This document shows, piece after piece, positions 40,375 through 64,000 of a DNA stretch of 64,000 nucleotides. Within the stretch, counting starts at the first letter, position 1. Every line of letters starts with the position of its first letter. The notes under the pieces were generated by a model. It ran no database searches and was not told the origin of the DNA. It was given only the letters and a program-made list of their open reading frames with translations. This DNA is from Lunularia cruciata (Eukaryota; Streptophyta; Marchantiopsida; Lunulariales; Lunulariaceae), in contig OX419755.1 of NCBI GenBank assembly GCA_948567375.1, positions 3,291,001 through 3,355,000 of the forward strand. Direction: 5' to 3'. The translations under genes and the position numbers were made by a program.

Positions 40375-41611
40375 CTAAGCACCACCCACTAATGTAACTC
40401 TAACCGAGATAACTACACTAGGGGAAAGGGCAACTTGTAACCTGCGATCATAACATGCACTCTCACGGTCTGCAGGTCATCACTTCCTGCCTCACCGGAG
40501 AGAAACAAAGGTAGTCTGACTGGTCATCACTCTAGCCTCACCATCGAGAGCACACCAGAGCACCAACACTCAAAAGTCAGGGCACCTCACACAAACGTGG
40601 TGCACAAACAGGAAGCAGAGAATGGAGGGGATCCAATCACAAGAAATCTAAACGAAAACCCTCCATCTCATAACACAACACGGGACTGACTCTGCCACCA
40701 TTTGGCATTTGACATAAGAGGAGTTTGTATCTAAGTCCTAAGCTACCAGGATCACCAAGAATGGGATCAAACTGCCTCTCCTAGCCAAAGCTACATGTGT
40801 ATAGATAACAGTGGCACAGTCACTATGACAACAAGTGAGTGTGGACAAGTTGGCTAGGGCACCAGTCTAGGAACAAGAGATCTAGGGGTCAAACCCTGTT
40901 GTGCACAATCTAGCAGGAAAGGCAGATTTTGCCAGCCAATGACAAAGATCTACTCTAAACTAGCTAGCCTCACGCCAGCAAGCTGGCTTGCTGGCCCTTC
41001 TGGCCCTTCGTAGCCTCTCATAGCCCACAGGCCTATGCCTCTAAACGCCGAAATTTAGCCAAATGAGGCCTTTCTTGTTGCCACTTCAAACCTCCTCCAA
41101 AATTGGCAAAACTTCTCCAAATCTGCGAAAGTCCTCCAAACTAGCAAAACTCCTCCAGATCTGGCCAAATAGCAAAAACTCTGGCCAAAATCTGACGTAA
41201 AATCTGACGTAAACCCTAAAGATGGTTGTCTGCCAAATCCCCCGCTAACTTTCCACTCAAGCCAAATTGACAAACCAGGTTTTTTCCAAATCACAAATTC
41301 ATGAGAAGAGCTTCCTAACTCCACCTTCAATTTGACTTTCTGAGCCCAACTCACAGCAAATTGGTCCTGCCTTCACCTCTTGAGCTCAAAATCACAACCA
41401 CTGGTCAAAAATTGCTCCTTCTTTGCTCAAAATTTGGCCAGCGCTTCCGCACACCATCCGCCTAACTGCCAAATCTGCATCAATTGAACTAGCTTCTGCA
41501 CACTAGGGAAACACAGAACTTGAATTGAGCTACCACGATCCACCAAGCTTGGAGATACCACCAACACTCAATGTTCATGCACCCGATTTCCCCCTGACCT
41601 CACTTCTCTGA
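40375..41611 (-). other. E1 leader
   Basis: About 1.24 kb between gag and the right B repeat with no supported gene. A primer-like word tggtggcagagtc (minus strand, near 40694-40706) lies about 0.9 kb inside the repeat. catcagagaag lies directly next to the repeat. Confidence 0.55.
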
Positions 41612-42062
41612 TGTAATCAGATTGCTTAACACTCTCAACTCAACTCAACTCAGATCAGTACTTGATCTGTCACTCTATAAACTGCCAACAACTGGGCACT
41701 AATTACAGTCAAGCAACACCCACTCAAACATAGAGAATCCAGGTGACGCTCGCCGGCCTCTATCCACCATAGCTAGGAACTCGAAGGCTCAACATCAAAG
41801 AAGTGAGCTCTTTGGAGCTCACTTCTAAACTATACCCCCTGGACTCAAGCTAGCTCTAAAACCCTAACGGTCCCGCTGACGGCACACTCGACGGTGCAAA
41901 CAGTGCAAAGTGACGGTGGGCCCCACCGTGAAGTCAGTACCCCAAACACAAAATCTAACCGTCGGAAAGTAGTCTTTGAGAAACTGCTAGAATAACTCTA
42001 ACTACTATCACTGGAACTCCAGTGTTTGAGCATCTAGATGCGGAACTACAAATGGCATGACA
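41612..42062 (-). repeat. E1 repeat B, right copy
   Basis: 451 bp from tgtaatcag to ggcatgaca. No A copy adjoins it on either side. Confidence 0.9.
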
Positions 42063-44671: not shown

Positions 44672-46237
44672 TTTTGTGCGTATATACATCGTTACACAAC
44701 ATACATTGCTGTCAATATCATACACTATAGAAGCACAACTCACACATAAGTCATACATAGACTCTAAAGTGCCACAATAATCAGATTGCTTACCACTCTC
44801 AACTCAACTCAACTCAGATCAATACTTGATCTATCACTCTATAAACTGCCAACAACTGGGCACTGATTACAGTCAAGCCACACCCACTCAAGTATAGAGA
44901 ATCTAGGTGATGCTCGCCGGCCTCTGTCCACCATAGCCAGGAACTCAAAGACTCAACATCAGAGAAGTGAGCTCTCTAGAGCTCACTTTGAAACTATACC
45001 CCTTGGACTCAAGCTAGCTCTGAAACCCTAACGGTCCCACTGATGGCACACTCGACGGTGCAAACGGTGCAAAGTGACGGTGGGCCCCACCGTGAAGTCA
45101 ATACCCCAAACACAAAATCTGACCGTCGGAAAATAGTCTTTGAGAAACTGCTGAAATAACTCTAACTACTATCACTAGAACTCCAGTGTCTGAGCATCTA
45201 GATGCGGCACTACAAATGGCGTGATAGTTGTTGTGCGTATACACATTGCTACACAACATACATTGATGTCAACATCATACACTATAGAAGCACAACTCAC
45301 ACATAAGTCATACATAGACTCTAAAGTGCCACAATTGCCCCCCTAGTTGGTGGTTAGGTCCCTCTAACTCCAGATAGCCATCTACTCTAAGTATATGGTA
45401 TACCCTCTAATGGGCAAAGATCAGGAGGCCGGGTGCTATGAAGCCCCATCATTAGTCACCTGCCTGCAATCTATACCATATAAAGAATGAACTAGCTTTA
45501 GGTCAAGTACATCTAGGACATAACCACTGTCCCTAAGGAACCACCGTGAGGGGAGGAGTCATACATGCCATATGCCATCCTCTCGAACAGTTATCACACA
45601 CTAACATAGTAGCAGCTCCACCAGAAGAGCCACATAACATACACCTCAAGCCTGCACGTACAAGTGCCAAGCTTGGGTCCATAGTACCATCAATGTTTGG
45701 AAAGTGGCATGGCGCACAATTGCGCACATGATCCTTCCAAACAACACCATCATGTCCTTGTAACACAAGGACCCCAGATGGCAAAACCTCGCACACTCTC
45801 AAGATAGTGCGGCGTGTAGAAACATCAAGTGTTGTCGGTGCTGTCTGTTGTAGATATACATAGTCGCCTGGATAAAATTGATGGATCGAGGATCTATAAC
45901 CTCCTCCTCGAATGGTAGCATAGCGTAAAGTATCTCTATGCTGAGCAATTGCCAAGTTCTCAAAGGCCATCAGCATCACTCTCCGAAAGATCTCTGCCCG
46001 CTGAGAACATGCGCTCATCCATACATCGGGGTCATCCAAGTCCAAAACTATAGTAGCATCTCGACAAATGGCTGCAGGTAAATCAGGATCTTGTCCATAG
46101 AGTAGAAAGTATGGAGAGAAGGATGCTATGGAGGCTTGCCGGCTGAACCAATAGCACATGGCCAACCAAGGTAATTGGAGATCCCAATCTCCCAAGTGGC
46201 CTCTCTACAAACCATACTTTTGCAATCCTCTCTTCAC
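44672..46237 (-). mobile_element. E2: methyltransferase/PHD retroelement, 3' part
   Basis: Left end A 44672-44776, B 44777-45226, inner A 45229-45333, then PHD finger and integrase C-terminus up to 46237, where E3 interrupts. Same family as E1 and E3. The rest lies at 59415-64000 and runs off the window. Fossil, broken many times. The target duplication cannot be checked because the right end is not in view. Confidence 0.88.
45533..46195 (-). pseudogene. E2 integrase C-terminus and PHD finger
   Basis: An open stretch of 220 codons: LPWLAMCYWFSRQAS, SPYFLLYGQDPDLPA, FYPGDYVYLQQ, then CMLCGSSGG...MLVCDNCSRGWHMAC. It shows that the PHD finger is fused to the integrase tail in the same frame. 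Confidence 0.85.
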
Positions 46238-46342
46238 TGTCATGTGTATATACATCACTACACAACATACATCGCTGTCAACATCATACACTATAAAAGC
46301 ACAACTCACACATAAGTCATACATAGACTCTAAAGTGCCACA
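46238..46342 (-). repeat. E3 repeat A, outer copy
   Basis: 105 bp, tgtcatgtg to agtgccaca. Confidence 0.92.
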
Positions 46343-46792
46343 ATAATCAGATTGCTTAACATTCTCAACTCAACTCAACTCAGATCAGTATTTGATCTGT
46401 CACTCTATAAACTGCCAACAATTGGGCACTGATTACAGTCAAGCCACACCCACTCAAGCATAGAGAATCCAGGTGACGCTCGCCGGCCTCTGTCCACCAT
46501 AGCCAGGAACTCGAAGGCTCAACATCAAAGAAGTGAGCTCTCTGGAGCTCACTTCGAAACTATACCCCCTGGACTTGAGCTAGCCCTGAAACCCTAACGG
46601 TCCCGCTGACGGCACACTCGACGGTGCAAACGGTGCAAAGTGACGGTGGGCCCCACCGTGAAGTCAGTACCCCGAACACGAAATCTAACCATCGGAAAGT
46701 AGTCCCTGAGAAACTGCTAGAATAACTCTAACTACCATCACTTGAACTCCAGTGTCCGAGCATCTAGATACGGAACTACAAATGGCGTGACA
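46343..46792 (-). repeat. E3 repeat B, left copy
   Basis: 450 bp, matching 55622-56072. Confidence 0.92.
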
Positions 46793-46794
46793 GC

Positions 46795-46899
46795 TGTCGT
46801 GCGTATATACATCGCTACACAACATACATCGCTGTCAACATCATACACTATAAAAGCACAACTCACACATAAGTCATACATAGACTCTAAAGTGCCACA
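46795..46899 (-). repeat. E3 repeat A, inner copy
   Basis: 105 bp starting tgtcgtgcg. gacagctgtc at 46789-46798 spans the B/A junction. Confidence 0.92.
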
Positions 46900-46912
46900 A
46901 TCGCCCCCCTAG
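46900..46912 (-). other. E3 polypurine tract
   Basis: ctaggggggcga on the minus strand, directly upstream of the inner A copy. This is where a plus-strand primer would be expected. Confidence 0.7.
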
Positions 46913-47068
46913 CTGGCGGTTAGGTCCCTCTAACTCTAGATAGCCATCTACTCTAAGTATATGGTATACCCTCTAATGGGCAAAGATCAGGAGGTCGGGT
47001 GCTATGGAGCCCCATCGTTAGTCGCCTGTCTGCAATCTATACCATATAAAGAATGAACTAGCTATAGG
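46913..47068 (-). other. E3 3' untranslated region
   Basis: About 155 bp between the end of the PHD finger and the purine tract. No gene. Confidence 0.6.
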
Positions 47069-47220
47069 TCAAGTACATCTAGGACATAACCACTGTCCCT
47101 GAGGAACCACCGTGAGGAGAGGAGTCATACATGCCATATGCCATCCTCTCGAACAGCTATCACACACTAACATAGTAGCAGCTCCACCAGAAGAGCCACA
47201 TAACATACACCTCAAGCCTG
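47069..47220 (-). pseudogene. E3 PHD finger
   Basis: Spacing CX2C (CMLC), CX2C (CDSC), HX2C (HMAC) and a final CX2C (CPRC) gives the full C4HC3 pattern, with W between as usual (GWHMAC, WLCPRC). PHD fingers read the histone H3 tail. Here it closes the polyprotein after the integrase, the place where chromoviruses carry a chromodomain. Fossil copy. Confidence 0.88.
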
Positions 47221-47399
47221 CACGTACAAGTGCCAAGCTTGGGTCCATAGTACCATCAATGTTTGGAAGGTGGCATGGCGCACAATTGCGCACATGATCC
47301 TTCCAAACAACACCATCACGTCCTTCTAACACAAGGACACCAGATGGCAAAACCTCGCGCACTCTCAAGATAGTGCGGCCTGTAGAAACATCAAGTTTG

Positions 47400-48350
47400 T
47401 CGGTGCTGTCTGCTGTAGATATACATAGTCACCTGGATGAAATCGACGGATCGAGGGTCTATAATCTCCTCCTCGAATGGTAGCATAGCGTAAAGTATCT
47501 CTATGCTGAGCAATCGCCAAGTTCTCAAAGGCCATCGGCATCACTCTCCGAAAGATCTCTGCCCGCTGAGAACATGCGCTCATCCATACATCGGGGTCAT
47601 CCAAGTCCAAAACTACAGTAGCATCTCGACAAATGGCTGCAGGTAAATCTGGATCTCGTCCATAGAGTAGAAAGTATGGAGAGAAGGATGCTAAGGAGGC
47701 TTGCCGGCTGAACCGGTAGCCCATGGCCAACCAAGGTAATTGGAGATCCCAATCTCCCAAGTGGCCTCTCTGCAAACCATACTTTCACAATCCTCTCTTT
47801 ACCGTCTGAACCACTCTCTCTGCTAAGCCATCTGCCTCAGGGTGATCTCGGGATGTAGTACGATGATCAATCAAAGCCTTGTCACACAAGACCTGAAACT
47901 CTCCCAAGAACTCTGTACCCTGATCAGTCAAAACCTCAGCTGGTGTACGAAAATGACTAAGAACTCGATCCAGGAACGAGTAAGCTGTCTCTTCACTAGA
48001 CTTGTCAGGAAGTGCCACCAACTCAATCCACTTGGAGAAGTGCTCCACCATCACCAAAACATACCGATGATGTCTCACAGTCAGCGGTAAAGGTCCGGCA
48101 AAGTCCAAACTCCAACGGTAACCCAATCCCATGATAGGTAATGGGTGTAACTGTGGCGTAGGAGCATTGAATGATGCTCTAACTCGGTCACAAACCACAC
48201 ATCTGGCAACAAACTGCTGTACCTCGGTCTGCATACCGCGCCACCAATAATGACTCTGGAGTAAGCTATATGTACGCTTTACTCCAAAATGTCCTAGCTC
48301 CTCATGAGCATGACGGACCAACTGTGGTCTCTGTGATGGAAGTGGTACTA
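47400..48350 (-). pseudogene. E3 integrase
   Basis: Zinc region HEELGHFGVKRTYSLL...CVVCDRV (HHCC, about 48160-48310), DDE core with WSLDFAGPL, VLTDQGTEF and DGLAERVVQ (about 47800-48110), then a C-terminal GDYVYLQQ fold. This makes the element DDE-type, despite its split repeats. Confidence 0.88.
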
Positions 48351-48679
48351 CTCGCACTCTACCATCCTCCCATACACGCAAAAGGTGTCTACCCTCCAAT
48401 CTGAACCGTCTAGCTCGCTGAAGAACACGATCTCTCTCCTTGGCCCCAACTGTGCCACCCACAACACCAGTGCGAAGATAGTCCATCACTAAGACATCAT
48501 CATGAATGTCTCGCTGAACTGTACCAATATCTTCACTCTCTGGATCTGTGACCTCAATAACTCCTCCTGTATGCGCTGAGAGAGATACCACCAATGTCTC
48601 TGCAAATATACACAGAAAGGCTGATGCATGCCAACCTGGCACCATCTCCTCATCTGTCTCACCATGCCAACGTGCTCCG

Positions 48680-49080
48680 GTCTGATCCTGCTGGCTGGGA
48701 CATGGGTTTCTACTCAACCCATCTGCATCACGGTTCACCACTCCAGGTCTGTGAACAACCGTGAAATCATACTCCTGTAAAATCAAAGCCCATCGTGCAA
48801 GCTTCCCTGAAAGCTTGTCGGACTCCATCAACCACTTCAGCGGCTGATGATCAGTGATGAGAGTGAAGGGGTTACCAAATAGGTAACATCGGAAATGTGC
48901 TACTGCCCAAACTGCTGCCAAGCACTCTCCCTCATATGAACTATACTTTGCCTCCGCTGAATTGTTGGAGCGACTAGCATAGGCCACCACAAACTCCTTC
49001 TCCTCATCATCATGTTGGGTGAGCACCGCTCCAAGCCCCAACATACTCCAATCAGTATGAACCTGAAATGGTCGTCCCCT
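48680..49080 (-). pseudogene. E3 RNase H
   Basis: TDWSMLGLGAVLTQ, YEGECLAAVWA, LITDHQPLKWL and RDADGLSRN give the usual Ty3-type RNase H residues. Confidence 0.85.
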
Positions 49081-49369
49081 GATCGGTCTCCTCAAAATAG
49101 GAGCAGATGTCAACCTCTCCTTGAGCTCTACAAAAGCTCTCTCTTGCTCATCTCCCCAACACCACTCCTGTGTAAGCTTGGTCAGCTTCGTCAAGGCCGT
49201 GGCAATGGCACTAAATCCTCTAACATAGCGGCGATAGAAGTTTGCCAACCCAAGGAATGCTCGCACTCTGCTCACATCCGTAGGCCGAGGAATACGTGCA
49301 ATAGCCTCCACCTTGGTCTGCTGAACACCAAGTCCTCCGGGGTAGATAGTGTGACCCAAATACTCAACC

Positions 49370-50110
49370 TGCTCATGGAACAACCTACACTTCCCAGGAT
49401 GTAATTTGAGTCCATGAGATCTCAACCTCTCAAACACCTCCAACAACTGTCTCTCATGCTCCTCCACAGTAGTGCTATACACCAAAATGTCATCAATATA
49501 GCACCGAGCAAAATCCAGTCCAGCTAGGATCCTATCCATGACCCTCTGGAACTCAGTAGGAGCATTCTTTAACCCAAATGGTAAGAACCTCCACTGATAT
49601 AACACATCCTTGCCGTGAGGATCAATAGCCCAAAATGCTGTCTTGGACTTATCCTCCTCCCTGATCGGCAACTGATGATATCCCGCTCAAAGATCCAAAG
49701 TACTGAAGACCTTTGCATGCCCAATCGCATCAAAAATCTCCTCCGGTGTAGGCATGGCATACCGATCAGCCCTAGTCTGTCGGTTGATAGGACGGTAATC
49801 TCCACACATCCGCCTATCTGTATAGTTGCCATGCATATCCTTCTTGGCTGGCATCACTGTCGTTGATGCATACTCTCCATGTGAAATCTCCACAAAACCA
49901 GCCTCAAAAAGGTCACTACTCCGGCTCTGAATCAATGTCCTCTCCATCTCACTATATCGATAAGGACGTCGGAAAACAGGTGTGTCGCTAGTCAGCTCAA
50001 TCCGTATACCAGGTCCCTTCAGAGCACCCAAATCCTTCATACTGAAGGCAAAACAACTCGTGTGACTCCTCAAGAACCTCCAAACCCTCCGTCTTTCCTC
50101 TCCAGTAAGT
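49370..50110 (-). pseudogene. E3 reverse transcriptase
   Basis: RRPYRYSEMERTLI, PAKKDM, CGDYRPINRQT, FSTLDL, LPFGLKNAPTEFQ and CYIDDILVYS. The catalytic YIDD lies at about 49490-49505. Ty3-type RT. Confidence 0.88.
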
Positions 50111-50155
50111 ATCCTCTGTAACTGTAGTAGGAGTGGAAGACGTACTGACTGGCTG

Positions 50156-51440
50156 CTACACTGGGCCCTTGGGAGCAATGGTGTCATGCTCCCGACCACT
50201 AGAGGTCCCAACCTCTGTGTGAAAAACTCCCTCCACTCTGGCTGCATCCCATGTGGACCAAGGGTGTAATCCAAGTAGCCCACGCTCACCTGGATGGACT
50301 CCAAGTAGACCACTCTCCCTAGTAGCTACTGGATGTGTCCCAAGAATACCATGTCCACTCGGTCCATCGCCCCCAGCATGTGCCTGAATCGTCTCGATAG
50401 GCACATGGCTCACAAGCGTCCGAGTGGTGATGCCTATCAAGCGCATCCTACGCTGCTCTGCCAAACCAAGGCTCACAATCCAAGTCAAACAGTTCAGGTC
50501 CATAGCCTGACCTAACACTTGACGCCTGGATGCCTCTGACACTGCTGGAACAGCGGTAATACCAGTGCAAAAACCCATCGCCCGCTCTCTCTCATCAGCA
50601 TTGGGCTCCACCAACTGCTGTAACTGTGAGTCCCAAACAAGTCCAGGTCCTCCCTCTCAAAAAGCATGAGAGCCTGGGAAACTCATGAGTGTGGGAAATG
50701 CAGCTCTAGGCTGTCCAACTAGGTTACCACTACCATAGGTGACCTATCAGCCACTACCACTGTCTGAGACTGACGCCCAACATCCAAGATATCATCAACA
50801 AGGATGTGGTCAAGTTGCTGAATCCCATCATAACTACGCTGTAGAACCTCTCTGGGTAAAAGGTTCGTCCACCAAAGACGAAGACGATGAGCCCGTGATC
50901 CCACTCTGGCTGCATCTAACAATACAGCAGGTCCCATCCATGAATGGACCTGATGTGTACTCGCCACCACTCTAGTGCAAGAATCACCCATCAATGGAAC
51001 GTTCTCCAAAAGGTAAGCTAGAGAAACAGACTGATGAACCTGGAGATGTCGTAGTATCCGTAACATCTCCCAAAACACACCAGAACAAGGATCCTGAAGA
51101 CCCAAACCACGGCCCGCATGTGTATGTCCTTGACATGGCCATCCAGAAATCACCAAGTGAATAGGCCCATGTCTCTCTAGGTCATGCGCCCCTTGTAAGG
51201 AAATGTCTCCTGGTAAGGCCTTCTGGTAACCTCTGACTGCTGACATCGGTAATAACTCCGGATACCGATAGGCCAAGTGTGCCACATGATGTAGAGAGAC
51301 TCGCCTAGCAGTCTCATCTCTCTCTACATACAAGTACCTCTGTACTCGGATACCCGCCTGTAACACCGTAGCTAGTCCGGTGCTGATCCCACCAAACAAC
51401 TCCAATAGGCATATCCCCTCTACTGGATACTGCCAAGCAA
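50156..51440 (-). pseudogene. E3 DNMT3-like cytosine-5 DNA methyltransferase domain
   Basis: Motif I LLELFGGISTGLATVLQAG (about 51370-51415, cofactor binding), YLYVERDETARR next to it, IHLVISGWPCQGHTHAGRG with the catalytic cysteine (about 51120-51160), LRILRHL, LLENVPLMG (about 50990-51015), SRAHRLRLWWTNL (about 50865-50905), ERERAMGF (about 50575-50600) and RRQVLGQAMDLN (about 50500-50530). The SAM, PC, ENV and AHR blocks line up in order with DNMT3-type enzymes, although PCQ is the DNMT1-style spelling. The first part is in one 722-codon open frame with the protease, so it belongs to the polyprotein and is not a captured neighbour. Fossil copy. Confidence 0.87.
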
Positions 51441-51859
51441 TGAGTGTGGTATCCAAAGGTGTCAAAGTAATCGCCTTTGGAGGCTCATCCTCACACTCAT
51501 CCCTTGATGGTACGAAGGCTCCACTCCAAGCCTGCTGCACCAACTGATCTGCATGCTGCTGCAATGCCTCCTTTGAACTCCACAATGGAACATCCAAGGT
51601 GGATGGAACAATCCCACTCGTACTCCAAAGTCGAGTGATCTCCTCTGGTACTGGAGTATCCTCTGCATGGGCGTTCCCCTCCAACAAGTCACCAGGCCAA
51701 GTAACTGCACCGTTGAAAGCCAAAACTGATGCTGCCATGGTCCCGGACTGTAGTGAGCCAAGACTGCCACTACTGAAGCGTACTGGTAGGCGACATACCC
51801 GTCCCTCACCAGACTGCCAACCAGGTCTATAAGAGGCTGTCTCCTCCCAATAGTCAATA

Positions 51860-52180
51860 CTGAAACCCATAGGGTATAACACTGCTCCCCCAACTAGCAC
51901 ATCATAGGACTCAGCTATCGTCGCAATAGCCTGAGCTCTCACCACCGAGCTATCAGTCGGATGACCAGGCTGAACCTGGACAACAAGCTCCCCACGTGTG
52001 ATGTACTGTGTCGAACCACCACCTAGAGATGTCTGGATCTGAAATGGACACCTCTCCACATCGGTCTTCCGTAACTCCAGACCAACAACTGCAGCCTTCC
52101 CCAACATAAGGGGCTGCGCACCAGAGTCTAACAAGACTCTCTGTGGTGTATAGACCTTCCCTGAAGGTCCCACTAAACAA
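51860..52180 (-). pseudogene. E3 aspartic protease
   Basis: VLLDSGAQPLML (about 52107-52142) with the DSG triad, then DVLVGGAVLYPMGFSIDYW about 90 residues on. A retropepsin placed between gag and the methyltransferase. Confidence 0.8.
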
Positions 52181-52189
52181 AAGATCCCC

Positions 52190-54350
52190 CTCTGGTTATC
52201 CAATAGGACAACACCAGGTGTAAACCGCGCTCTCTCAAAGGCCGGTCTAGCTGGCAACTCCTCCAGTCTAGCCGCTGCTGCCTGCCACAACCCACTAGTC
52301 GCTGAACGGATCCCATGCTCCTCAACCAAGTCAGCTCCACTACCAACCACCTCTGCTCTAGTAGTAGGAACTGCACCATCCCTACTCTCACACAACGTGG
52401 CAGCCAACCGGAACACTGGGGCTGGGTCAACTCCCAATGTAAACATGTCACTGGCTGAAAATAAAGGATGCCGCATAATCAGCTGAGCCGCCCCCAACAT
52501 CATGCTAGACTCAGTCTGTGTAGTAGCAGGTGGCTGACTAGCAGGTACTCCATCACCACCTACCACACTTGCACTGGGACGTCTAGGAACCATGGATGTC
52601 GTCTGCAATGCCTCAGATAGCATGAAAGACTGGGGAAGTCTGACCTGTCTCCCAACCTCTCCTCTCTGTGGGTCCAACTCCACTGATGCTCCTCTAGGCT
52701 CTGGAGCACGTACTGCACTCCTAGTCACTGCTGCAGATGCATCCACCTGTGTTGCTCCGCACATGAAGTCCAAAGCATCTCTATCACCAGCATATGAGGT
52801 GGAAGCCTCAGCACCCGAATCTGATCTCCTCTGAGCAATAGCCATACTAGCCAATCTCTGCTCCAACTGCTCAATCCGAGTAGCCATAGCTGTGTCAGAA
52901 GTAAGGGCAGGTACTGAACCCTACTAGGTGTAGATCCTCTACCACCACCTCTACCACCTCGTCCTCCATGAACTGGAGCTCCTCTACTACCTGCCATAGC
53001 AGCCCTACCACTCCGTAACTCCGGGTGTAGGTCAAAACACCGGTCACTAGTGTGACCAAATCTGTGGCAATGCTCACACTGCCTCTGTGCTGGCTGTGAC
53101 GCACCAAAGGTATCAGGTCCGCTGCCCTGAGTACACTCTCTCCTATGGTGAGGTCCACCACAAGTCCAACAAGCAACACCACCACTCACTGGCTGCTACT
53201 GACCCGAAAATGAGGGTAAGGGTCTAACTCCACTAGGCCCTCCACTCGCTCCATAGGATCTGGGCTGTCCACCCTGTACTCGAAAACCAACTGGGTGTGG
53301 TGCACTCTGCTGCACTCTAGAAGAAGTCACAACCGTGGATGAGGTCTCTCTACCAAATCCAGCTGTCACCACTCTCTCCTCCACCATGTTGAGCTCAATA
53401 CGCTCAGCCAAACCAAAGACTACTGCCAAAGTGGGCGAAGTAGCCTGCAACAACGTAGCATCACAAACTCTACGTCGCAACTCCCTGTCCAGTATCCCAT
53501 ACCAAAACTGGACTGCCTGGGCCTCAGTAACTCCCTGAGTGAAACTAATCAGCCGCCTCATGCGAGTGTATGCCTCGCGTAGGCTCTCTCCAGCCTTCTG
53601 CTGGAACTCCTGCAAGCTCCTCAGCTTGTCAGTCCGCACTCCCTGGTAGTTCTGCCTCAAACATAGGAAGAACTCCACCATGGGGTTAAACCCCGGTACC
53701 ACACCACCTCCTACAGCGGTACCTCCACTCGTAGTAGCACTATCTCCAGCTAGTGCACCTCCACTAGCTCCACCCACACTACTCGAGCTAGAACTCGTAG
53801 GTACAGCCGATCTACTCCTGGCCACCGAGCCTGAAGTGATAGAGACATAGTGAGGAGTCTCCATAACTCAGTCTCCTCCAAATGAGCTCTCTTGAACTCA
53901 TGGTAATCGTCCATCGGTGGACCCTCCAAGTGCTGAAACAACCCCTTCCATGCCATGAAGGGTGTGAACAAAGTCGGGTTCCGCATCTACTGCAAATCAC
54001 ACCAACTATCGAACTCCTGGATGAAATCATCCAACTCAATAGTACCCACTGTACTAGAGTAACGCCTAGGGCCTTTGGAGGCCCCATAAATCTCGTCCAT
54101 GTCCCACAACAACGGTGCGGACACACCAAGTGCACTCTCAATTGAATCAGCTCCTGTGTCGAACTCCAACTCAGAGTCAATCTCCTCCCTCACTGGGACC
54201 TGAGATACATGCTGATACCGAGCACCACTCCGAGTAAACCCACTGCGTACTGTAGGGCTAACTCCTCTGGAATCTCCAAAGAACTCCGTCGTGACCACGT
54301 AACTGCAACAGGAAACCCGAACCACCAACTGCAACCGCAAGTCGCAACTG
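52190..54350 (-). pseudogene. E3 gag region
   Basis: Capsid-like LDDFIQEFDSWCDLQ, FLCLRQNYQGVRTDKLRSL and FWYGILDRELRRRVCDATLLQ, then two different zinc knuckles, CWTCGGPHHRREC (about 53135-53175) and CEHCHRFGHTSDRC (about 53040-53085). A GGRGGRGGGRG patch and a heptad RIEQLEQRLASM (about 52840-52885) follow. Fossil. Confidence 0.8.
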
Positions 54351-54378
54351 CAAGTGCTCCACCAAGTGCCAACACCAA

Positions 54379-55621
54379 CTAAACACCACCCACTAATGTA
54401 ACTCTACCGAGAGAACTACACTAGGGGAAGGGCAACCTGTAACCTGCCATCATAACACGCACTCTCACGGTCTGCAGGTCATCACTTCCTGCCTCACCGG
54501 AGAGAAACAAAGGTAGTCTGATTGGTCATCACTCCAGCCTCACCACCGAGAGCACACCAGAGCACCAATGCTCAAAAGTCAAGGCACCTCACACAAACGT
54601 GGTGCACAAACAGGAAGCAGAGAATGGAGGGGATCCAATCACAAGAAATCTAAACAAAAACCCTCCATCTCATAACACAACACGGGACTGACTCTGCCAC
54701 CATTTGCCATTTGACATAAGAGCAGTTCGTATCTAAGTCCTAAGCTACCAGGATCACCAAGAATGGGATCAAACTGCCTCTCCTAGCCAAAGCTACATGT
54801 GTATAGATAACAGTGGCACAATCACTATGACAACAAGTGAGGGTGGACCAGTTGGCTAGGGCACCAGTCTAGGAACAAGAGATCTAGGGGTCAAACCCTA
54901 TTGCGCACAATCTAGCAAGAAAGGCAGATTTTGCCAACCAATGACCAAGATCTACACTAAACTAGCTAGCCTCACGCCAGCAAGCTGGCTTGCTGGCCCT
55001 TCTAGGCCTTCGTAGCCTCTCATAGCCCACAGCCCTATGCCTCAAAACGCCGAAATTCAGCCAAATGAGGCCTTTCTTGTTGCCACTTCGAACCTCCTCC
55101 AAAATTGGCGAAACTTCTCCAAATCTGCGAAACTCCTCCAAACTAGCGAAACTTCTCCAAATCTGGCCAAACAGCGAAACTCCTCCAATTCTGGCCCAAA
55201 AATCTGACGTAAAATCTGACGTAAACCCTAAAGATGGATGTCCGCCAAATCCCCCGCTAACTTTCCACTCGAGCCAAATTGACAAAACGGGTTTTTCCAA
55301 ATCACAATTTCATGAGAAGAGCTTTCCAACTCCACCTTCAATTTCACTTTCTGAGCCCAACTCGCAGCAAATTGGTCCTGCCTTCACCTCCTGAGCTCAA
55401 AATCACAACACTGCTCGAAAATTGCTCCTTCTTTGCTCAAAATTTGGCCAGCGCTTCCGCACACCGTCCGCCTAACTGCAAAATTTGCATCAACTACACG
55501 AGCTTCTACACACTAGGGAAACATAGAACCTGAATCGAGCTACCACGATCCACCGAGCTTGGAGATACCACCAACACTCAACGTTCCTGCACCCAATTTC
55601 CCCCTGACTTCACTTCTCTGA
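54379..55621 (-). other. E3 leader
   Basis: 1.24 kb with no supported gene, the same length as in E1. tggtggcagagtc (minus strand, near 54690-54702) and catcagagaag (next to the B repeat) are two candidate primer sites; neither is a clean match to a tRNA end. Confidence 0.55.
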
Positions 55622-56072
55622 TGTAATCAGATTGCTTAACATTCTCAACTCAACTCAACTCAGATCAATACTTGATCTGTCACTCTATAAACTGCCAACA
55701 ACTGGGCACTGATTACAGTCAAGCCACACCCACTCAAGCATAGAGAATCCAGGTGACGCTCGCCGGCCTCTGTCCACCATAGCAAGGAACTCGAAGGCTC
55801 AACATCAGAGAAGTGAGCTCTCTGGAGCTCACTTCGAAACTATACCCCCTGGACTCGAGCTAGCCCTGAAACCCTAACGGTCCCGCTGACGGCACACTTG
55901 ACGGTGCAAACGGTGCAAAGTGATGGTGGGCCCCACCATGAAGTCAGTACCCCGAACACGAAATCTAACCATCGGAAAGTAGTCCCTGAGAAACTGCTAG
56001 AATAACTCTAACTACCATCACTGGAACTCCAATGTCCGAGCATCTAGATACGGAACTAGAAATGGCGTGACA
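55622..56072 (-). repeat. E3 repeat B, right copy
   Basis: 451 bp, tgtaatcag to ggcgtgaca, the sole terminal repeat on this side. Confidence 0.92.
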
Positions 56073-56905
56073 TCACCGTTGTCGTGGGGATCGTTTGGTC
56101 TCGAGATTGCGCTGGGCACCTGGCTGCCTGCACTTAGGCTTTTGGAGTGTTTTTTCCTTCTTGTACCGTCTATTATTAGTCCCGGCTCATTTTTCTTGAC
56201 CTCTTGGTTGGTCTATTATCCTCGGCTTTAATATGTTTTGGGTTTGGTGGGGTTTGCAGTTCTGGTCCAGACTGATCTTTCAGAGAGAATGATCTGGTGG
56301 GGTTTTGTGGAGTTTTCCACAAGTTATGTAACCGGACTCAATCCCGGGCAATTGGTTAAATGTGCTGACCCATCTACATAATCCAGACTGAGTGTAAAAA
56401 AAGAAGTAAAATAAAAAACATTATTATTATCTTCCCTACCGCTGTTTGCACATCAAGTACACACACTCAATCACTAGGAATCTCATTTCCATCTCAACTC
56501 CAAGTTTCATAGTTTATAATCCTTTGAGCCATGACACACGGCTCCTAACCAAACAGTGACCAAACTGAAGCACACTGACTAGCCAAGCACATGAAGAAAG
56601 AAAAGGAATTGAGCAGGTCCTATTTCCTATTCCTTACAACTTGTCATCTCATTGTTCTGCAGCATCTCCAATTTGTCGTTCTTTCCGAGTCTCCACTGTC
56701 CAGTAGGTCCTTCCTCGGGATTCTCCTTTCTCTTCGATATTCCGGTATGTTAGATCCTCCCGAACGCTCTACACTGCCCTTGCCAAAGGTCGCTACGCCT
56801 TGTAGAAGCTCTTGACAAATCCCTTATCGAGCTTCTATATCCAGTCCTCGTATTATCTTGAGCTGAACATGACTTCTCTCTTCTTTTTGTTCATGTCCAC
56901 CTTTC

Positions 56906-57690
56906 CTTTGCAAAGCTAGTCTGGCCTTTATCAAAACCTCTCTACTGTCATTTCCCAAAAGCTCTCTGTCCAGCCCTCATTTTTCTCGAAAAATTTCACC
57001 CACTCTCATCATGTGCACTCTCGCAAACTTCTCCTTTGAAAAATCTCACGTAGATCCACTGAAAAACCCCTGTTCAGCCCTTCTCCTTCTTGAAAATCCT
57101 GCAACCTCTCCTTTGCAAAGCTAGTCTGGCCTTTCCCGAAAACTCTCTACTGTCATTACCCAAAAGCTCCCTGTCCAGCTCTCATCTTTCTTGAAATTTT
57201 CACACTGTCAGCATGTGCACTCCTGCAAACTTCTCCTTTGGAAATTCTCATGAAATCCCACTAAAAAACCCTTGTTCAGCCTTCTCCTTCTTGAAAATCC
57301 TGCAACCTCTCCTTTGCAAAGCTAGTCTGGCCTTTCCCAAAAACTCTCTACTGTCATTACTCGAAAGCTCTCTGTCGAGCTCTCATCTTTCTTGAAATTT
57401 TCACACTGTCAGCATGTGCACTCCCGCAAACTTCTCCTTTGAAAATTCTCAGGAAAATCCACTAAAAAACCCTTGTTCAGCCTTCTCCTTCTTGAAAATC
57501 CTGCAACCTCTCCTTTGCAAAGCTAGTCGGGCCTTTCCCGAAAACTCTCTATTGTCATAACCCAAAAGCTCTCTGTCTAGCCCTCATTTTTCTCAAAAAA
57601 TTTCACACACTGTCATCATGTGCACTCCCGCAAACTTCTCCTTTGAAAAATCTCACGTAGATCCACTAAAAAACCCCTGTCAAGCCTCAC
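56906..57690. repeat. Tandem repeat in E4, about 201-205 bp, nearly four units
   Basis: ctttgcaaagctagtc recurs at 56906, 57111, 57312 and 57513. The last unit fades near 57690. The terminal 75 bp of E4 (cctgcaacc..tcctta...tggcc) resembles part of the unit. Confidence 0.85.
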
Positions 57691-58683
57691 AATTACAGAG
57701 AAAGAATTGCGATTCAAAAACAATGATGGCAGATCAATGTAGACTAATCTGCCAAAATCTACCTACTTTGAATGCTATCACGCCAGCAACCAAAAACAAT
57801 CCACTTGATGCTGATTTCTTCCTACGTCCCACGCAAATAGAGCTGCCAGTAAGGTAACCATCTATACTCCCTAACATGCTGATGTCCTCCGGACATTTTG
57901 CCAGAAGTCACCTCGTGTAATATCCACACCTATTCTTGAATGGGTTCCTCTTTGCTTAGCACTTAAACTTTATAGATTTCCAGTCTCCTTGAGATCCCAT
58001 ATCCAACGTCCACTATGAGAGAGTTTCGAGACGCCTAATGTCCACATTGTAGTGAGTATCTGCTCCACGGCATGCCCGTCCACTTTAGCATCCCTAGTGA
58101 AATTTTCACTAGCTTGACGTGCCTTTCTAGTGACACTTTGTCTTTAAACACAATTCCACATCTTCCGTATACTACAAGATAGCTTCCACCCTTTCCATTC
58201 AGAGAGCCACCAACTCCCAGAAGTAAAATCCAAATCCCTTGGACCAGCTTGTGTCTCTCGTTCAATCTCTGTCTACTATCTTGCTGACACTAAACCAGTG
58301 TCAGGAATAACTCCTGGCCCCAACCTCCATCACCAAGACGTCTGCTTCTTCTATCTTTGGAACTTTTATTGCTCTCAACCCTTACCAGCAACTTTGTCAA
58401 TCACCAGTTAAAGACATCACAACATAAATCTCTCCAGATAATCTCTAACGGTGAGATCACCTGTCACCGTCCCAATCTACTCAATGATGAAAGGTTGTTT
58501 GCAGTACACAACTATATTCGACATGAGCTCGTAAGAAGGGCACGCTCCCCTGATTCTAACTAATTTACCCCAGCAAGCATAGAAGCAAGCCAGTAGTTCA
58601 CATCCGATATTCCTTCAACGACATTTTGCATTTCACAACCTCTCATCTTCCACAATATCTGTAATCCCTACCCCAACATCCCA
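57691..58683. other. E4 middle section, unrecognised
   Basis: Looks like ordinary unique DNA, unlike the CT-rich flanks, and could be captured host sequence. Short open frames only. No identity is claimed. Confidence 0.35.
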
Positions 58684-59132
58684 TCATCTCAACAAACAAC
58701 CACTCCTATCCCTGATATTTTTCTCTCCGTGAGAATCAAAAGCCCTACCTTTCCTCACTATCCTCGATCCAACACTCCAATTTTTCTCACTTCCTCCCTC
58801 CACCCGCAGATTCAAAACCCCCCTTCGATCCTTCACTGTCTTTCCCCCAAACCCCTCAATATTTTTCTGTCCTATTAACCTTTCAAGATTTTTCTGTCCT
58901 CCCAAAACCCCCTTCGAACTGTTCCTGTCCCTTCCCAAAACCCCTCGAGCTCCTTGTCTCCTTGATTTTTCTTTTGTTGCCGCTACCCAACTCTGCCTTC
59001 CATTCTTTCCCGTTCCCCTTTCTCTGCCACGATCTTCCTGTTTTTTTTTTCTTCCGTTTCTGTTTTTTCTTCCCTTTTGTTTTTCCCTTCTTGATTCCTC
59101 CTTCGCAGAAAAAACCTTTTTCTGTTCCTGTC

Positions 59133-59275
59133 CTTTGCAAAACCTTTTTCTGTTCCTGTCCTTTGCAAAAAACCTTTTCCTGATCCTGTCCTTTGCAAAA
59201 CCTTTTTCTGTTCTTGTCCTTTGCAAAAAACCTATTCCTGTTCCTGTCCTTTGCAAAACCTTTTTCTGTTCCTTT
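59133..59275. repeat. Minisatellite alternating 28 and 30 bp
   Basis: ctttgcaaaa starts at 59133, 59161, 59191, 59219 and 59249, giving spacings of 28, 30, 28 and 30 bp. The unit is ctttgcaaaacctttttctg plus ttcctgtc. A lysine/arginine-rich open frame on the minus strand is a by-product of it. Confidence 0.85.
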
Positions 59276-60406
59276 CTTGAAAATTCCAACTACCACTCCT
59301 TACCAAGCTCATTTGACATTCTTTTTTTCAAAAACTCTCTGCTGTCCAGTCCTCATCTGTCCCAAATCCTGCAACCACTCCTTACCACTCTCATTTGGCC
59401 TTTTCTCGATGACACCGTCTGAACCACTCTCTCTGCTAAGCCATCTGCCTCAGGGTGATCTTGGGAAGTAGTACGATGATCAATCAAAGCCTTGTCACAC
59501 AAGACCTGAAACTCCCCCAAGAACTCTGTACCATGATCAGTCAAAACCTCAGCTGGTGCACCAAAATGACTAAGAACTCGATCCAGGAACGAGTAAGCTG
59601 TCCCTTCACTAGACTTGTCAAGAAGTGCCACCAACTCAATCCACTTGGAGAAGTGCTCCACCATCACCAAAACATACTGATGATGTCTCACAATCAGCAA
59701 TAAAGGTCCGGCAAAGTCCAAACTCCAATAGTAACCCAATCCCATGATAGGTAATGGGTGTAACTATGGCGTAGGAGCATTGAATGATGCTCTAACTTGG
59801 TCACAAACCACACATCTGGCAACAAATTGTTGTACCCCGGTCTGCATACTGCGCCACCAATAATGACTCTGGAGTAAGCTATATGTACGCTTTACTCCAA
59901 AATGTCCTAGCTCCTCATGAGCATGACGGACCAACTGTGGTCTCTGAGATGGAAGTGGTACTACTCACACTCTACCATCCTCCCATACACGCAAAAGGTG
60001 TCTACCCTCCAATCTGAACCGCCTGGCTTGCTAAAGAAAACGGTCTTTCTCCTTGGGACCCAACTGTGCCACCCACAACACCAGTGCAAAGATAGTCCAT
60101 CACTAAGACATCATCATGAATATCTCGCTGAACTGAACCAATATCTTCACTCTTTGGATTTGTGACCTCAATAACTCCTCATGTATGCGTTGAGAGAGAT
60201 ACCACCAAAGCCTCTACAAATATACACATAAGGGCCGATGCATGCCAACCTGGCACCATCTCCTCGTCTGTCTCACCATGCCAACATGCTCCGGTCTGAT
60301 CCTGCTGGCTGGGGCATGGATTTCTACTCAACCCATTTGCATCACGGTTCACCACTCCAGGTCTGTGAACAACCGTGAAATCATACTCTTGTAAAATCAG
60401 AGCCCA

Positions 60407-61690
60407 TCATGCAAGCTTCCTTGAAAGCTTGTTGGACTCCATCAACCACTTCAGCAGCTGATGATCAATGATGAGAGTGAAGGGGTTACCAAATAGGTAA
60501 CATCGGAAATGTGCTACTGCCCAAACTGCTGCCAAGCACTCTCCCTCATATGAACTATACTTCACCTCCGCTGAATTGTTGGAGCGACTAGCAAAGACCA
60601 CCACAAACTCCTTCTCCTCATCATCATGTTGGGTGAGCACCGCTCCAAGCCCCAACATACTCCAATCAGTATGAACCTGAAATGGTTGTCCCCTGATCGG
60701 TCTCCTCAAAATAGGAGCAAATGTCAACCTCTCCTTGAGCTCTACAAAAGCTCTCTCCTGCTGATCTCCCCAACACCACTTGTGTGTAAGCTTGGTTCAG
60801 CTTTGTCAAGGCCTTGGCAATGGCACAGAATCCTCTAACATAGCGGCAATAGAAGTTTGCCAACCCAAGGAATGCTCGCACTTTACTCACATCCGTAGGC
60901 CGAGGAATACGTGCAATAGCCTCCACCTTGGTCTGTTGAACACCAAGTCCTCTGGGGTAGATAGTGTGACCCAAATACTCAACCTGCTCGTGGAAGAACC
61001 TACACTTCCCAGGATGTAATTTGAGTCCATGAGATCTCAACCTCTCAAACACCTCCAACAACTGTCTCTCATGCTCCTCCACAGTAGTGCTATAAACCAA
61101 AATGTCATCAATATAGCACCAAGTAAAATCCAATCCAGCTAGGATCCTAACCATGACCCTCTGGAACTCAACAAGAGCGTTCTTTAACCCAAATGGTAAG
61201 AACCTCCATTGATATAACACATCCTTGCTGTGAGGATCAATAGCCCAAAATGCTATCTTGGACTTATCCTCCTCCCTGATTGGGAACTGATGATATCCCA
61301 CTCAAAGATCCAAAGTACTGAAGACCTTTGCATGCCCAATCGCATCAAAAATCTCCTTCGGTATAGGCATGGCATACCGATCAGCCCTGGTTTGTCGGTT
61401 GATAGGACGGTTATCTCCACACATCTGCCTATTTGTATTGTTGCCATGCATATCCTTCTTGGTTGGCATCATTGTTGCTGATGCATACTCTCCATGTGAA
61501 ATCTCCACTAAACCAGCCTCAAAAAGGTCACGACTCCGGCTCTGAATCAATGTCCTCTCCATCTCACTATATCGATAAGGACATTGGAAAACTAGTGTGT
61601 TGCTAGTCAGCTCAATCCATATACCAAGTCCCTTCAGAGCACCCAAATCCTTCATATTGAAGGTAAAACAACTCGTATGACTCCTCAAGA
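60407..61690 (-). pseudogene. E2 RT and RNase H
   Basis: GYHQFPIREEDKSK, LPFGLKNALVEFQ, CYIDDILVYS and YLGHTIYPRG, then TDWSMLGLGAVLTQ and YEGECLAAVWA. Fossil. Confidence 0.82.
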
Positions 61691-61796
61691 ACCTCCAAAC
61701 CCTCTGTCTTTCCTCTCCAGTAAACTTGGGTCCAAGATCTGGCTCCCAAGTATCCTCTGTAACTGTAGTAGGAGTGGAAGATGTACTGACTGACTA

Positions 61797-63256
61797 CTAC
61801 ACTGGGCCCTTGGGAGCAATAGTGTCATGCTCTCGACCACTAGAGGTCCTAACCTCTGTGTGAAAAACTCCCTCCACTCTGGCTGCAAGCTCCACACGTC
61901 CTCTAGCTGCATCCCATGTAGACCAAGGGTGTAATCCAAGTAGCCCATGCTCACCTGGATGGACTCCAAGTAGACCACTCTCTCTAGTAAATATTGGATG
62001 TGTCCCAAGAATACCATGTCTGCTCGGTCCATCACCCCCAACATGTGCCTGAATTGTCTCGATAGGCACAGGGCTCACAAGTGTCCGAGTGGTGATGCCT
62101 ATCAAGCGCATCCTACGCTACTCTGCCAAGCCAAGGCTCACAATCCAGGTCAAACAGTTCAGGTCCATAGCTTGATCTAACATCTGACGCCTGGATGCCT
62201 CTAACATTGCTGGAACAGCGGTAATACCGGTGCAAAAACCCATCACCCGCTCTCTCTCATCAGTGTTGGGCTCCACCAACTGCTGTAACTGTGAGTCCCA
62301 AACAAGTCCAGGTCCTCCCTCTCAAAAAGCATGAGAGCCTGGGAAACTCATGAGAGTAGGAAATGCGGCTCTTGGCCGTCCAACTAGGTTCACCATTGCC
62401 ATAGGTGACCTATCAGCCACTACCACTGTCTGAGACTAACGCCCAACATCCAAGATATCATCAACAAGAATGTGGTCCAGTCGTTGAATCCCATCATAAG
62501 CACAATGTAGAACCTCTCTGGGTAAGAGTTTCATCCACCAAAGACAAAGACAATGAGCCCGTGATCCCACTTTGGCTACATCTAACAATACAGCAGGTCC
62601 CATCCAAGAATGGATCTGATGTGTACTCGCTACCACTCTAGTGCGAGAATCACCCACCAAAGGAACGTTCTCCAAAATGTAAGCTGGACCTCATGAACTT
62701 GGAGATGTCGTAGTATCCGTAACATCTCCCAAAACACACTAGAATGAGGATCCTGAAGACCCAAACCGCGGCCCGCATGTGTATGTCCCTGACATGGCCA
62801 TCCAGAAATCACCAAGTGAATAGGCTCATGTCTCTCTAGGTCATGCACCCCTTGTAAGGAAATGTCTCCTGGTAGGGCCTTCTGGTAACCTCTGACTCCT
62901 GACATTGGTAATAACTCCGGATACCAATAGGCCAAGTGTGCCACATGATGTAGAGAGACTCGCCTAGCAGTCTCATCTCTCTCTACATACAAGTACCTCT
63001 GTACTTGTATACCCGCTTGTAACACCGCAGCTAGTCCGGTGCTGATCCCACCAAACAACTCCAATAGGCAAATCCCCTCTACTGTATATTGCCAAGCAAT
63101 GAGTGTGGTATCCAAAGGTGTCAAAGAAATTGCCTCTGGAGGCTCATCCTCACACTTATCTCCTAATGGTATGAAAGCTCCACTCCAAGCCTGCTGCACC
63201 AATTGATCTGCATGCTGCTGCAATGCTTCCTCTGAACTCCACAATGGAACATCCAA
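61797..63256 (-). pseudogene. E2 DNMT3-like methyltransferase domain
   Basis: ICLLELFGGISTGLAAVLQAG (about 63030-63080), VISGWPCQGHTHAGRG (about 62780-62815) and MENVPLVG (about 62650-62675) are all kept, as in E1 and E3. The three copies therefore agree on the key motifs although each is otherwise decayed. Fossil. Confidence 0.82.
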
Positions 63257-64000
63257 AGTGGATGGAACAATCCCACTCGTCCTCCATAGCCGAGTGACCT
63301 CCTCTCATACTGGAGTATCCTCTGCATGGGCGTTCCCCTCCAACAAGTCACCAGGCCAAGTAATTGCACCACTGAAAGCTAAAACTGATGCTGCTATGGT
63401 CCTAGACTGTAGTGAGCCAAGATTGCCACTACTGAAGTGTATTGGTAGGCGACATACCCGTCCCTCACCAAACTGCCAACCAGGTCTATAAGAGGTTGTC
63501 TCCTCCCAATAGTCAATGCTGAAACCCATGGGGTATAACACTGCTCCCCCAACTAGCACATCATATGACTCAGCTATTCTCGCAATAGCCTGAGCTCTCA
63601 CCACCGAGCTTTCAGTCGGATGACCAGGTTGAACCTGGACAACAAGATCTCCATGTGTGATGTACTTTGTCGAACCGCCACCTAGAGATGTTTGGATTTG
63701 AAATGGACACCTCTCCACATCGGTCTTCCGTAACTCCAGACCGACAATTGCAGCCTTCCCCAACATAAGGGGCTACGCACCAGAGTCTAACAAGACTCTC
63801 TGTGGTGTATAGACCTTCCCTAAAGGTCCCACCAAACAAAAAATCCCCCTCTGGTTATCCAATAGGACTACACCAGGTGTGAACCCCGCTCTCTCAAAGG
63901 CCGGTCTAGCTGGCAACTCCTCCAGTGTAGCCGTTGTTGCTTGCCATATAGCATGAAAGACTGGGGAAGTTTGACTTGTCTCCCAACCTCTCCTCTCTGT

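What the first reader, a model, noticed from the sequence alone, without database searches (positions are those of the whole stretch)
46238..56072. A plant Ty3-type retroelement carries a cytosine-5 DNA methyltransferase between protease and RT
In E3 one open frame of 722 codons runs from the end of gag through the protease into a methyltransferase with motif I (ELFGG), the catalytic PCQ, ENV and the AHR block. E1 and E2 have the same domain at the same place. DNMT-bearing retrotransposons have, from memory, been reported in dinoflagellates and charophyte algae (de Mendoza and colleagues, 2018). I know of no described land-plant family. If active, such an element could methylate its own DNA or its target, turning the host silencing mark to its own use.
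Basis: partly seen in the sequence, partly recalled or inferred. Interest (0 to 1): 0.95.

Follow-up and report, generated by a model that had tools for sequence, protein, structure and literature searches.

The report
Plant retrotransposon carrying a DNA methyltransferase
A jumping gene in what is most likely a land-plant genome carries its own DNA-methylating enzyme and a histone-reading finger, an arrangement of a kind so far described in algae, although the three copies seen here are all broken.

Summary
E3 (46238-56072, minus strand) is a Ty3-type element with TGTCA..TGACA ends and a 4-bp target duplication. In E1, E2 and E3 a C5 DNA methyltransferase lies between protease and reverse transcriptase. 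It is of un-rearranged DNMT3 type (PDB best hit DNMT3A, 4.7e-10; DRM2 0.04). In E3 motifs I-VIII lie in one 733-codon frame; motifs IX-X lie beyond a TGA that all three copies share. Beyond the finding: a PHD finger follows the integrase in all three; repeats run A-coding-B-A-B, as reported for KnitGypsy-Dnmt3 of the charophyte Klebsormidium; a UAG in the plant-virus readthrough context CAR-YYA separates DNMT from RT; the copies decay by C-to-T at CG and CHG, the mark of methylation. A DUF247 gene points to a land-plant host; a 2019 paper states such transposons are absent there. Selection on the DNMT is not shown, no copy is intact, and descent from a host DNMT3 or a phage-like relative is unresolved. 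A new member of a known kind in a probably new host group; its function (methylating its own cDNA) is inferred.

The parts
46238..56072 (-). E3: complete element, termini TGTCA..TGACA, TSD TCAC (46234-46237 / 56073-56076), inserted in the integrase region of E2
55624..56072 (-). repeat A at the 5' end of E3 (449 bp)
   Evidence: 97.3% identical to the 3' A of E3, 91.9-93.5% to the A copies of E1 and E2
46794..46901 (-). repeat B, internal, after a purine tract AGGGGGG (sense)
46344..46792 (-). repeat A, 3' copy
46238..46344 (-). repeat B, terminal copy (A-coding-B-A-B order)
52728..54403 (-). gag region in pieces: Retrotrans_gag E 4.4e-4 (below Pfam's cut-off) in 53196-53867; two zinc-knuckle-like stretches at 53133-53171 and 53037-53078 (by eye)
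50722..52920 (-). 733-codon frame: linker, protease (DSGAQ 52114-52128, by eye), spacer, DNMT motifs I-VIII
50722..51465 (-). DNMT3-type methyltransferase, motifs I (ELFGG 51388-51402), IV (PCQ 51130-51138), VI (ENV 50998-51006), VIII (AHR 50884-50892)
50657..50659 (-). TGA in the DNMT frame, shared by E1, E2 and E3
50159..50656 (-). DNMT motifs IX-X (ERERAMGF 50570-50593, RRQVLGQA 50504-50527) and spacer to RT
   Evidence: 0 of 2000 shuffles reach the score against DNMT3A
50150..50158 (-). TAG CAG CCA: stop shared by all three copies, in CAR-YYA context, before RT
47788..49686 (-). RT (part), RNase H, integrase H2C2 and DDE core
   Evidence: RVT_1 3.7e-25, RT_RNaseH 1.4e-36, H2C2 1.6e-18, rve 8.8e-14
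47368..47784 (-). integrase C-terminal part
   Evidence: no Pfam family
47075..47209 (-). PHD finger after the integrase (in E3 in another frame than 47368-47784)
   Evidence: E 7.3e-11
32128..42062 (-). E1: second complete copy, TSD TCCC (32124-32127 / 42063-42066); low end TATCG instead of TGTCG; DNMT motif I at 37342-37356, IX at 36523-36546; PHD from 33103 down
44676..46237 (-). E2, 3' part: B-A-B repeats, integrase C-terminus and PHD (cut short) in one frame (45533-46204)
59415..64000 (-). E2, remaining part (integrase core to protease; runs off the window); DNMT motif I at 63047-63061, IX at 62235-62258
56080..59414 (.). 3.3-kb second insert beside E3, ends TGTCG..TGACA, TSD CCGT; no terminal direct repeat in a self-blastn; three ORFs of 155-229 codons give no Pfam match; possible passenger of the same integrase

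Best explanation
E1-E3 are decayed copies of a Ty3-type (Metaviridae) retrotransposon family. Its polyprotein ran gag - protease - DNMT3-type methyltransferase - RT - RNase H - DDE integrase - PHD finger, bounded by split repeats A-coding-B-A-B. Shown: domains and order, ends, 4-bp target duplications, repeat plan, C-to-T decay at CG and CHG. Inferred: the DNMT was made with gag/protease while RT-integrase-PHD followed by suppression of the UAG, so the enzyme sat in the particle and methylated the new cDNA, letting the copy enter the genome already carrying the host's CG mark (escaping recognition as foreign DNA, or keeping damage to the host low); the PHD finger tethered the integrase to nucleosomes of a given H3 state, as chromodomains do in chromoviruses. 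The local copies are dead.
For: Domains in all three copies. DNMT3A best in PDB with DRM2 far behind, motif order I-IV-VI-VIII then IX-X, AHR at motif VIII as in DNMT3A. PHD in one frame with the integrase C-terminus in E2 and E1. TSDs of E3 and E1. A-coding-B-A-B in E1 and E3 and its 3' part in E2. Repeat A pair more alike within E3 than between copies. UAG-CAG-CCA as the only one of 10 in-frame stops of E1's gag-RT frame with CAR-YYA, kept as a stop in 3 of 3 copies. Third-position bias in protease+spacer (share 0.56, p 6e-4, E1-E3). A dinoflagellate retroelement DNMT3 methylates CG in yeast (PMC5890265).
Against: All three copies carry a TGA before motifs IX-X; E3 also has a 1-nt deletion there. 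DNMT dN/dS is 0.41 (E1-E3), 0.69 (E1-E2) and 0.59 (E3-E2, motifs I-VIII only) against 0.41-1.09 in the six wrong-frame controls; third-position share p 0.098, 0.45, 0.43: selection is not shown. Stops shared by two copies occur in conflicting pairs (E1+E2 twice, E2+E3 once), so parallel decay happens and weakens the case that the shared TAG is programmed. The KnitGypsy enzyme gave no activity in yeast, which its authors call inconclusive. No methylation, expression or particle data. AlphaFold on the DNMT piece failed (mean pLDDT 31.9).
Confidence: 0.5

Rival explanations
1. Passenger domain: the element captured a DNMT3 once, but in this subfamily it was already truncated in the progenitor (shared TGA) and the copies were mobilised in trans or with RT made by another route; the DNMT has no function here.
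For: TGA shared by 3 of 3 copies and unlikely three times over by separate CpG decay (CpG lost where the other two copies keep it: E1 32 of 100, E2 48 of 116, E3 10 of 78); DNMT selection not distinguishable from controls; differences between the two shared stops show no third-position lean in E1-E2 (15 of 39).
Against: Motifs IX-X beyond the TGA still align with DNMT3A in all three copies and differences between the stops lean to third positions in E1-E3 and E3-E2 (14 of 26 and 14 of 29); key motifs kept in E3; the second shared stop, in a readthrough context, shows that a shared stop need not be a lesion.
Confidence: 0.3
2. Methylation aimed at the target or at host genes: with the PHD finger the enzyme would be brought to chromatin and methylate the insertion site or host chromatin, not the cDNA.
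For: PHD finger in the same coding region; DNMT3 enzymes of animals use a histone-reading ADD/PHD-type module (recalled).
Against: PHD lies after the integrase, on the far side of the UAG from the DNMT, so protease would part them (inference); no data on placement.
Confidence: 0.12
3. The DNMT was not taken from a plant DNMT3 but from a phage- or giant-virus-like DNMT3 relative.
For: blastp of the E3 piece: phage enzymes Epa40 71.2, Vibrio 1.021 70.9, Perkons 65.1 and PS_L5 63.5 bits, DNMT3A 59.3, phage 121Q 58.5; PCQ at motif IV as in 5 of 5 phage proteins and not PCN as in DNMT3A.
Against: AHR at motif VIII as in DNMT3A, absent from 5 of 5 phage proteins; the branch to E3 is long, its letter make-up is unlike the rest and its place unresolved; no plant DNMT3 was available to compare.
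Confidence: 0.25
4. Artefact: assembly chimera or chance match.
For: None found.
Against: Three copies about 6-7% apart with the same order, nested insertion with a clean TSD, Pfam and PDB matches.
Confidence: 0.02

Closest known systems
KnitGypsy-Dnmt3 (Klebsormidium nitens, charophyte; de Mendoza et al. 2018, PMC5890265; abstract, parts 1, 3 and 4 of 7 of the main section and passages read; figures not held)
   Same: Ty3/Gypsy domains, un-rearranged DNMT3 inside the gag-pol coding region, no introns reported there and none seen here, repeats reported as A-coding-B-A-B like DIRS
   Different: Host here very probably a land plant; a PHD finger is present (the word PHD does not occur in the held text of that paper; its figures could not be seen); that paper reports Ka/Ks below 0.2 for the DNMT, which three decayed copies do not show here
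SymbioDIRS-Dnmt3 (dinoflagellate; same paper)
   Same: DNMT3 in Pol; A-B-A-B repeats
   Different: Tyrosine recombinase instead of DDE integrase; a separate acquisition according to the authors
Plant chromoviruses (Ty3 with chromodomain; recalled)
   Same: Chromatin-reading domain after the integrase
   Different: PHD instead of chromodomain; DNMT present
Gypsy elements of Phalaenopsis with an AlkB-like RNA demethylase (PMC9289625; one section and passages read)
   Same: Plant Ty3 element that took up an enzyme acting on nucleic-acid methylation
   Different: Separate ORF, demethylase, angiosperm; the section read on its screen of 121 angiosperm genomes names no DNMT or PHD (not all of its 15 domains are named there)

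Membership tests
Ty3/Metaviridae LTR retrotransposon | PR-RT-RNaseH-IN order with DDE integrase | tested here: met
   RT, RNase H and IN by Pfam; protease by its DSGAQ stretch only
Ty3/Metaviridae LTR retrotransposon | TG..CA ends and short TSD | tested here: met
   E3 TCAC, E1 TCCC; one E1 end reads TA; the 5' end of E2 lies outside the window
Ty3/Metaviridae LTR retrotransposon | identical LTRs at both ends | tested here: not met
   A alone at the 5' end, B-A-B at the 3' end
Ty3/Metaviridae LTR retrotransposon | tRNA primer site (TGG..) after the 5' repeat | tested here: inconclusive
   CATCAGAGAAG.. follows A in E1 and E3, no TGG start; no tRNA set compared
KnitGypsy-Dnmt3-like elements | DNMT3 inside gag-pol of a Ty3 element | tested here: met
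KnitGypsy-Dnmt3-like elements | A-coding-B-A-B repeats | tested here: met
   E1 and E3 whole, E2 3' part
KnitGypsy-Dnmt3-like elements | common descent of RT and DNMT with the Klebsormidium element | not testable with these tools
   no Klebsormidium sequence held; protein database switched off
KnitGypsy-Dnmt3-like elements | purifying selection on the DNMT | tested here: inconclusive
DNMT3 family | motif order I-IV-VI-VIII-IX-X, not rearranged | tested here: met
DNMT3 family | closer to DNMT3 than to DRM, DNMT2 or bacterial Dcm of known structure | tested here: met
   PDB ranking; but 4 of 5 DNMT3-like phage enzymes score higher than DNMT3A
DNMT3 family | PCN at motif IV (as in DNMT3A) | tested here: not met
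   PCQ
DRM | rearranged motif order | tested here: not met
DIRS | tyrosine recombinase, no TSD | tested here: not met
   rve found, no tyrosine-recombinase match in the pieces scanned; TSDs present
Chromovirus | chromodomain after IN | tested here: not met
   PHD and no chromodomain in the pieces scanned
Active methyltransferase | unbroken frame through motif X | tested here: not met
   broken in 3 of 3 copies

The most novel reading that the evidence does not exclude
Land plants host a Ty3 lineage whose polyprotein carries both a DNA-methylation writer (DNMT3 type, made with gag) and a histone reader (PHD, made with integrase after UAG readthrough): it lays the host's silencing mark on its own cDNA before integration and picks its target by histone state, with a split-repeat cycle that joins a DIRS-like repeat plan to a DDE integrase.
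Probability: 0.25. Interest if true: 0.88.

Novelty: new member of a known kind. Interest (0 to 1): 0.6.

Why it matters
Transposons are the chief targets of cytosine methylation, so an element that brings its own methyltransferase is a paradox that can be tested. The kind is published for dinoflagellates and one charophyte; a 2019 paper builds an argument on its absence from land plants (PMC6338049, passages). A land-plant family, here with three copies in 64 kb, would put the question where methylomes and mutants can be had, and the PHD plus UAG layout gives a concrete hypothesis of who methylates what and when.

Tried and rejected
Chance frame: rejected. Assembly artefact: rejected. DRM or DNMT2-type enzyme: rejected by motif order and PDB ranking. 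Close bacterial relative: none in GTDB contigs (13 stretches matched a pattern, 0 confirmed); 2 plasmid records and 181 phage records matched (all below 60% identity), which opened the phage-origin rival. IMG/VR gave 2 loci (of 3 stretches) sharing only query residues 95-120. NCBIfam: only the bacterial dcm superfamily, far below its cut-off. Small tree of 10 proteins: E3 falls with DNMT3A and the five phage enzymes, apart from HhaI, DNMT2 and a cyanobacterial plasmid enzyme, at 86/78 support (drawn open), with a long E3 branch; not decisive. AlphaFold: useless model, no fold search made. dN/dS: one search used a wrong frame for E1-E2 and was replaced. Intron across the shared TGA: considered in thought only. 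Three parallel CpG or CHG decays as the cause of the two shared stops: judged unlikely rates, not excluded.
Full report
Observation. On the minus strand of the window lie three copies of one element: E1 32128-42062, E2 44676-46237 continued at 59415-64000 (it runs off the window), and E3 46238-56072. E3 sits in the integrase region of E2. Its ends are TGTCA..TGACA and it is flanked by TCAC on both sides; E1 is flanked by TCCC, and one of its ends reads TATCG. E1-E3 differ by about 6%, E2-E3 by 6-7%.

Methyltransferase. Pfam DNA_methylase passes its cut-off in pieces of all three copies (E3 9.6e-7, E2 1.6e-5, E1 8.3e-6). Against PDB chains the E3 piece hits DNMT3A at 4.7e-10 and DNMT3B at 2.8e-8; HaeIII 0.009, DRM2 0.04, HhaI 0.16, DNMT2 1.7-1.8. 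Motifs are in the canonical order: ELFGG, PCQ, ENV, AHR in the open frame, then IX-X (ERERAMGF.. RRQVLGQA..) in the next piece, whose best local alignment to DNMT3A beats 2000 of 2000 shuffles for E3 and E1 and 1998 of 2000 for E2; a PDB search with that piece alone found only an unrelated antibody fragment at E 0.74, and Pfam found nothing in it. The order excludes the rearranged DRM type. PCQ at motif IV is unlike DNMT3A (PCN) and like the phage enzymes; AHR at motif VIII is like DNMT3A and unlike 5 of 5 phage enzymes. By blastp 4 of 5 phage enzymes score higher than DNMT3A (71.2, 70.9, 65.1, 63.5 against 59.3 bits; the fifth 58.5). The source, host DNMT3 or virus, is therefore open. According to PMC6453930 (passages) true DNMT3s exist throughout plants except angiosperms.

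Other domains. RT, RNase H, H2C2 and DDE integrase core in 47788-49686. After the integrase a PHD finger: E3 7.3e-11, E1 2.5e-7, E2 1.4e-7, in one frame with the integrase C-terminus in E2 and E1 but not in E3. PDB relatives are PHD fingers of chromatin proteins (CHD4, KMT2C/D, ATXR5, KDM5, UHRF1). Two literature searches (1 of 1 listed, 43: 20 of 33 listed) and two papers opened from the second one (PMC2836005: a PHD at the C-terminus of a Ginger1 transposase; PMC5408684: a reference to PHD in CR1 LINEs) showed no PHD-bearing Ty3 element; PMC10508981 on plant Tat elements has no mention of PHD or methyltransferase. The library is open-licence only.

Repeats. In sense orientation E3 and E1 read A - coding - B - A - B (A about 449 bp, B about 108 bp); E2 shows the B-A-B part. 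The two A copies of E3 are 97.3% alike against 91.7-94.2% for A copies of different elements; for E1 the within-pair figure (93.5%) is no better than between elements, as an older insertion would give, so the within-pair argument rests on E3 alone; B copies are too short and alike to tell. A purine tract stands before internal B; no TGG primer site follows A. Inference: ordinary reverse transcription between those marks would make a B-A repeat at both ends; the integrated form is the circular permutation that a two-repeat circle opened at the B/A junction would give, and the internal B/A junction of E1 and E3 is the two element ends joined through GC. De Mendoza 2018 reports the same repeat plan for KnitGypsy-Dnmt3 (Fig. 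4 legend).

Stops and decay. Over protease to integrase core 22 codon positions hold a stop in at least one of the three copies (12 and 10 rows). Of the 20 not shared by all, 16 are CAG-to-TAG or CGA-to-TGA against another copy, 4 are not (CCA, GAG and twice GGA in the others); none is TAA. Three are shared by two copies, in conflicting pairs (E1+E2 twice, E2+E3 once), so parallel decay occurs. Singleton C-to-T/G-to-A counts for CG, CHG and CHH: E1 26 of 166, 28 of 340, 22 of 1742; E2 40 of 192, 49 of 406, 35 of 1783; E3 7 of 125, 10 of 274, 18 of 1712. This is the trace of CG and CHG methylation in the genome; in land plants CHG is set by chromomethylases (in the moss by PpCMT, PMC6453930 passages), so it does not show the element's own enzyme at work. 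E3 shows many apparent A-to-G/T-to-C singletons (43 of 94), probably sites where E1 and E2 decayed in parallel. Two stops are shared by all three: TGA before motif IX, and TAG before RT. The TAG is followed by CAG CCA in E1 and E3 (TAG TCA in E2, each one C-to-T step away), the CAR-YYA context known from tobamovirus readthrough (recalled; one search gave only a listing); it is 1 of 10 in-frame stops of E1's gag-RT frame with that context. I read it as a programmed stop that sets RT-integrase-PHD below gag-protease-DNMT in amount. The TGA has no such context and is the strongest point against a working DNMT in this subfamily.

Selection. Protease plus spacer shows coding constraint (dN/dS 0.25, 0.42, 0.32 for E1-E3, E1-E2, E3-E2; third-position excess p 6e-4, 0.043, 0.0018; controls 0.69-1.78). 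The DNMT gives 0.41, 0.69, 0.59 (p 0.098, 0.45, 0.43) with wrong-frame controls from 0.41 to 1.09: inconclusive. RT likewise (0.52 and 1.09), and gag 0.45 against 0.61 and 0.67, so with these decayed copies the test lacks power. Between the two shared stops third positions hold 14 of 26 (E1-E3), 15 of 39 (E1-E2) and 14 of 29 (E3-E2) differences.

Host. The window holds a DUF247 gene (1229-2893, Pfam 1.1e-50); DUF247 is reported almost only from land plants, with three fungal sequences as exceptions (PMC10221614, passages). The species is unknown; the genome search did not complete. One gene is thin evidence, and a charophyte host is not strictly excluded.

Literature. PMC6338049 (passages) states that methylase-encoding transposons are not present in land plants such as tracheophytes. 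[quoted passage not shown] The listings (20 of 51, 20 of 142, 19 of 20 and 25 of 41 papers; titles and starts of abstracts) show no land-plant case. The library lacks most subscription papers.

Verdict. A real DNMT3-bearing Ty3 family, of the kind described in Klebsormidium, most likely in a land plant, with a PHD finger in addition. The function is inferred, and the three copies seen are dead.

Noticed in passing
47075-47209 (E3), 32960-33520 (E1), 45533-46204 (E2): PHD finger behind the integrase in all three copies.
   Followed up: yes
50150-50158: UAG in CAR-YYA context between DNMT and RT, kept as a stop in three copies: possible programmed readthrough.
   Followed up: partly
56080-59414: 3.3-kb insert 3 bp past the TSD of E3, ends TGTCG..TGACA, TSD CCGT, with a tandem array of about 201-bp units (about 56899-57687); first 9 bases 8 of 9 like the end of internal B (by eye). 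Perhaps mobilised by the same integrase.
   Followed up: partly
1229-2893: Single-frame DUF247 gene (Pfam 1.1e-50) on the minus strand, the best clue to a land-plant host.
   Followed up: partly
14245-17798 and 28285-30955: Another Ty3-type element (RT, integrase) with a diverged inverted second copy 11-16 kb away (76-82% complementary).
   Followed up: no
6587-12911: Nested inverted repeats (arms 192-360 nt, 88-89% complementary), possibly small DNA transposons.
   Followed up: no
Pseudomonas phage Epa40 (L004) and Psychrobacillus phage Perkons (L005): Phage C5 methyltransferases strongly DNMT3-like (124 and 114 bits to human DNMT3A).
   Followed up: partly
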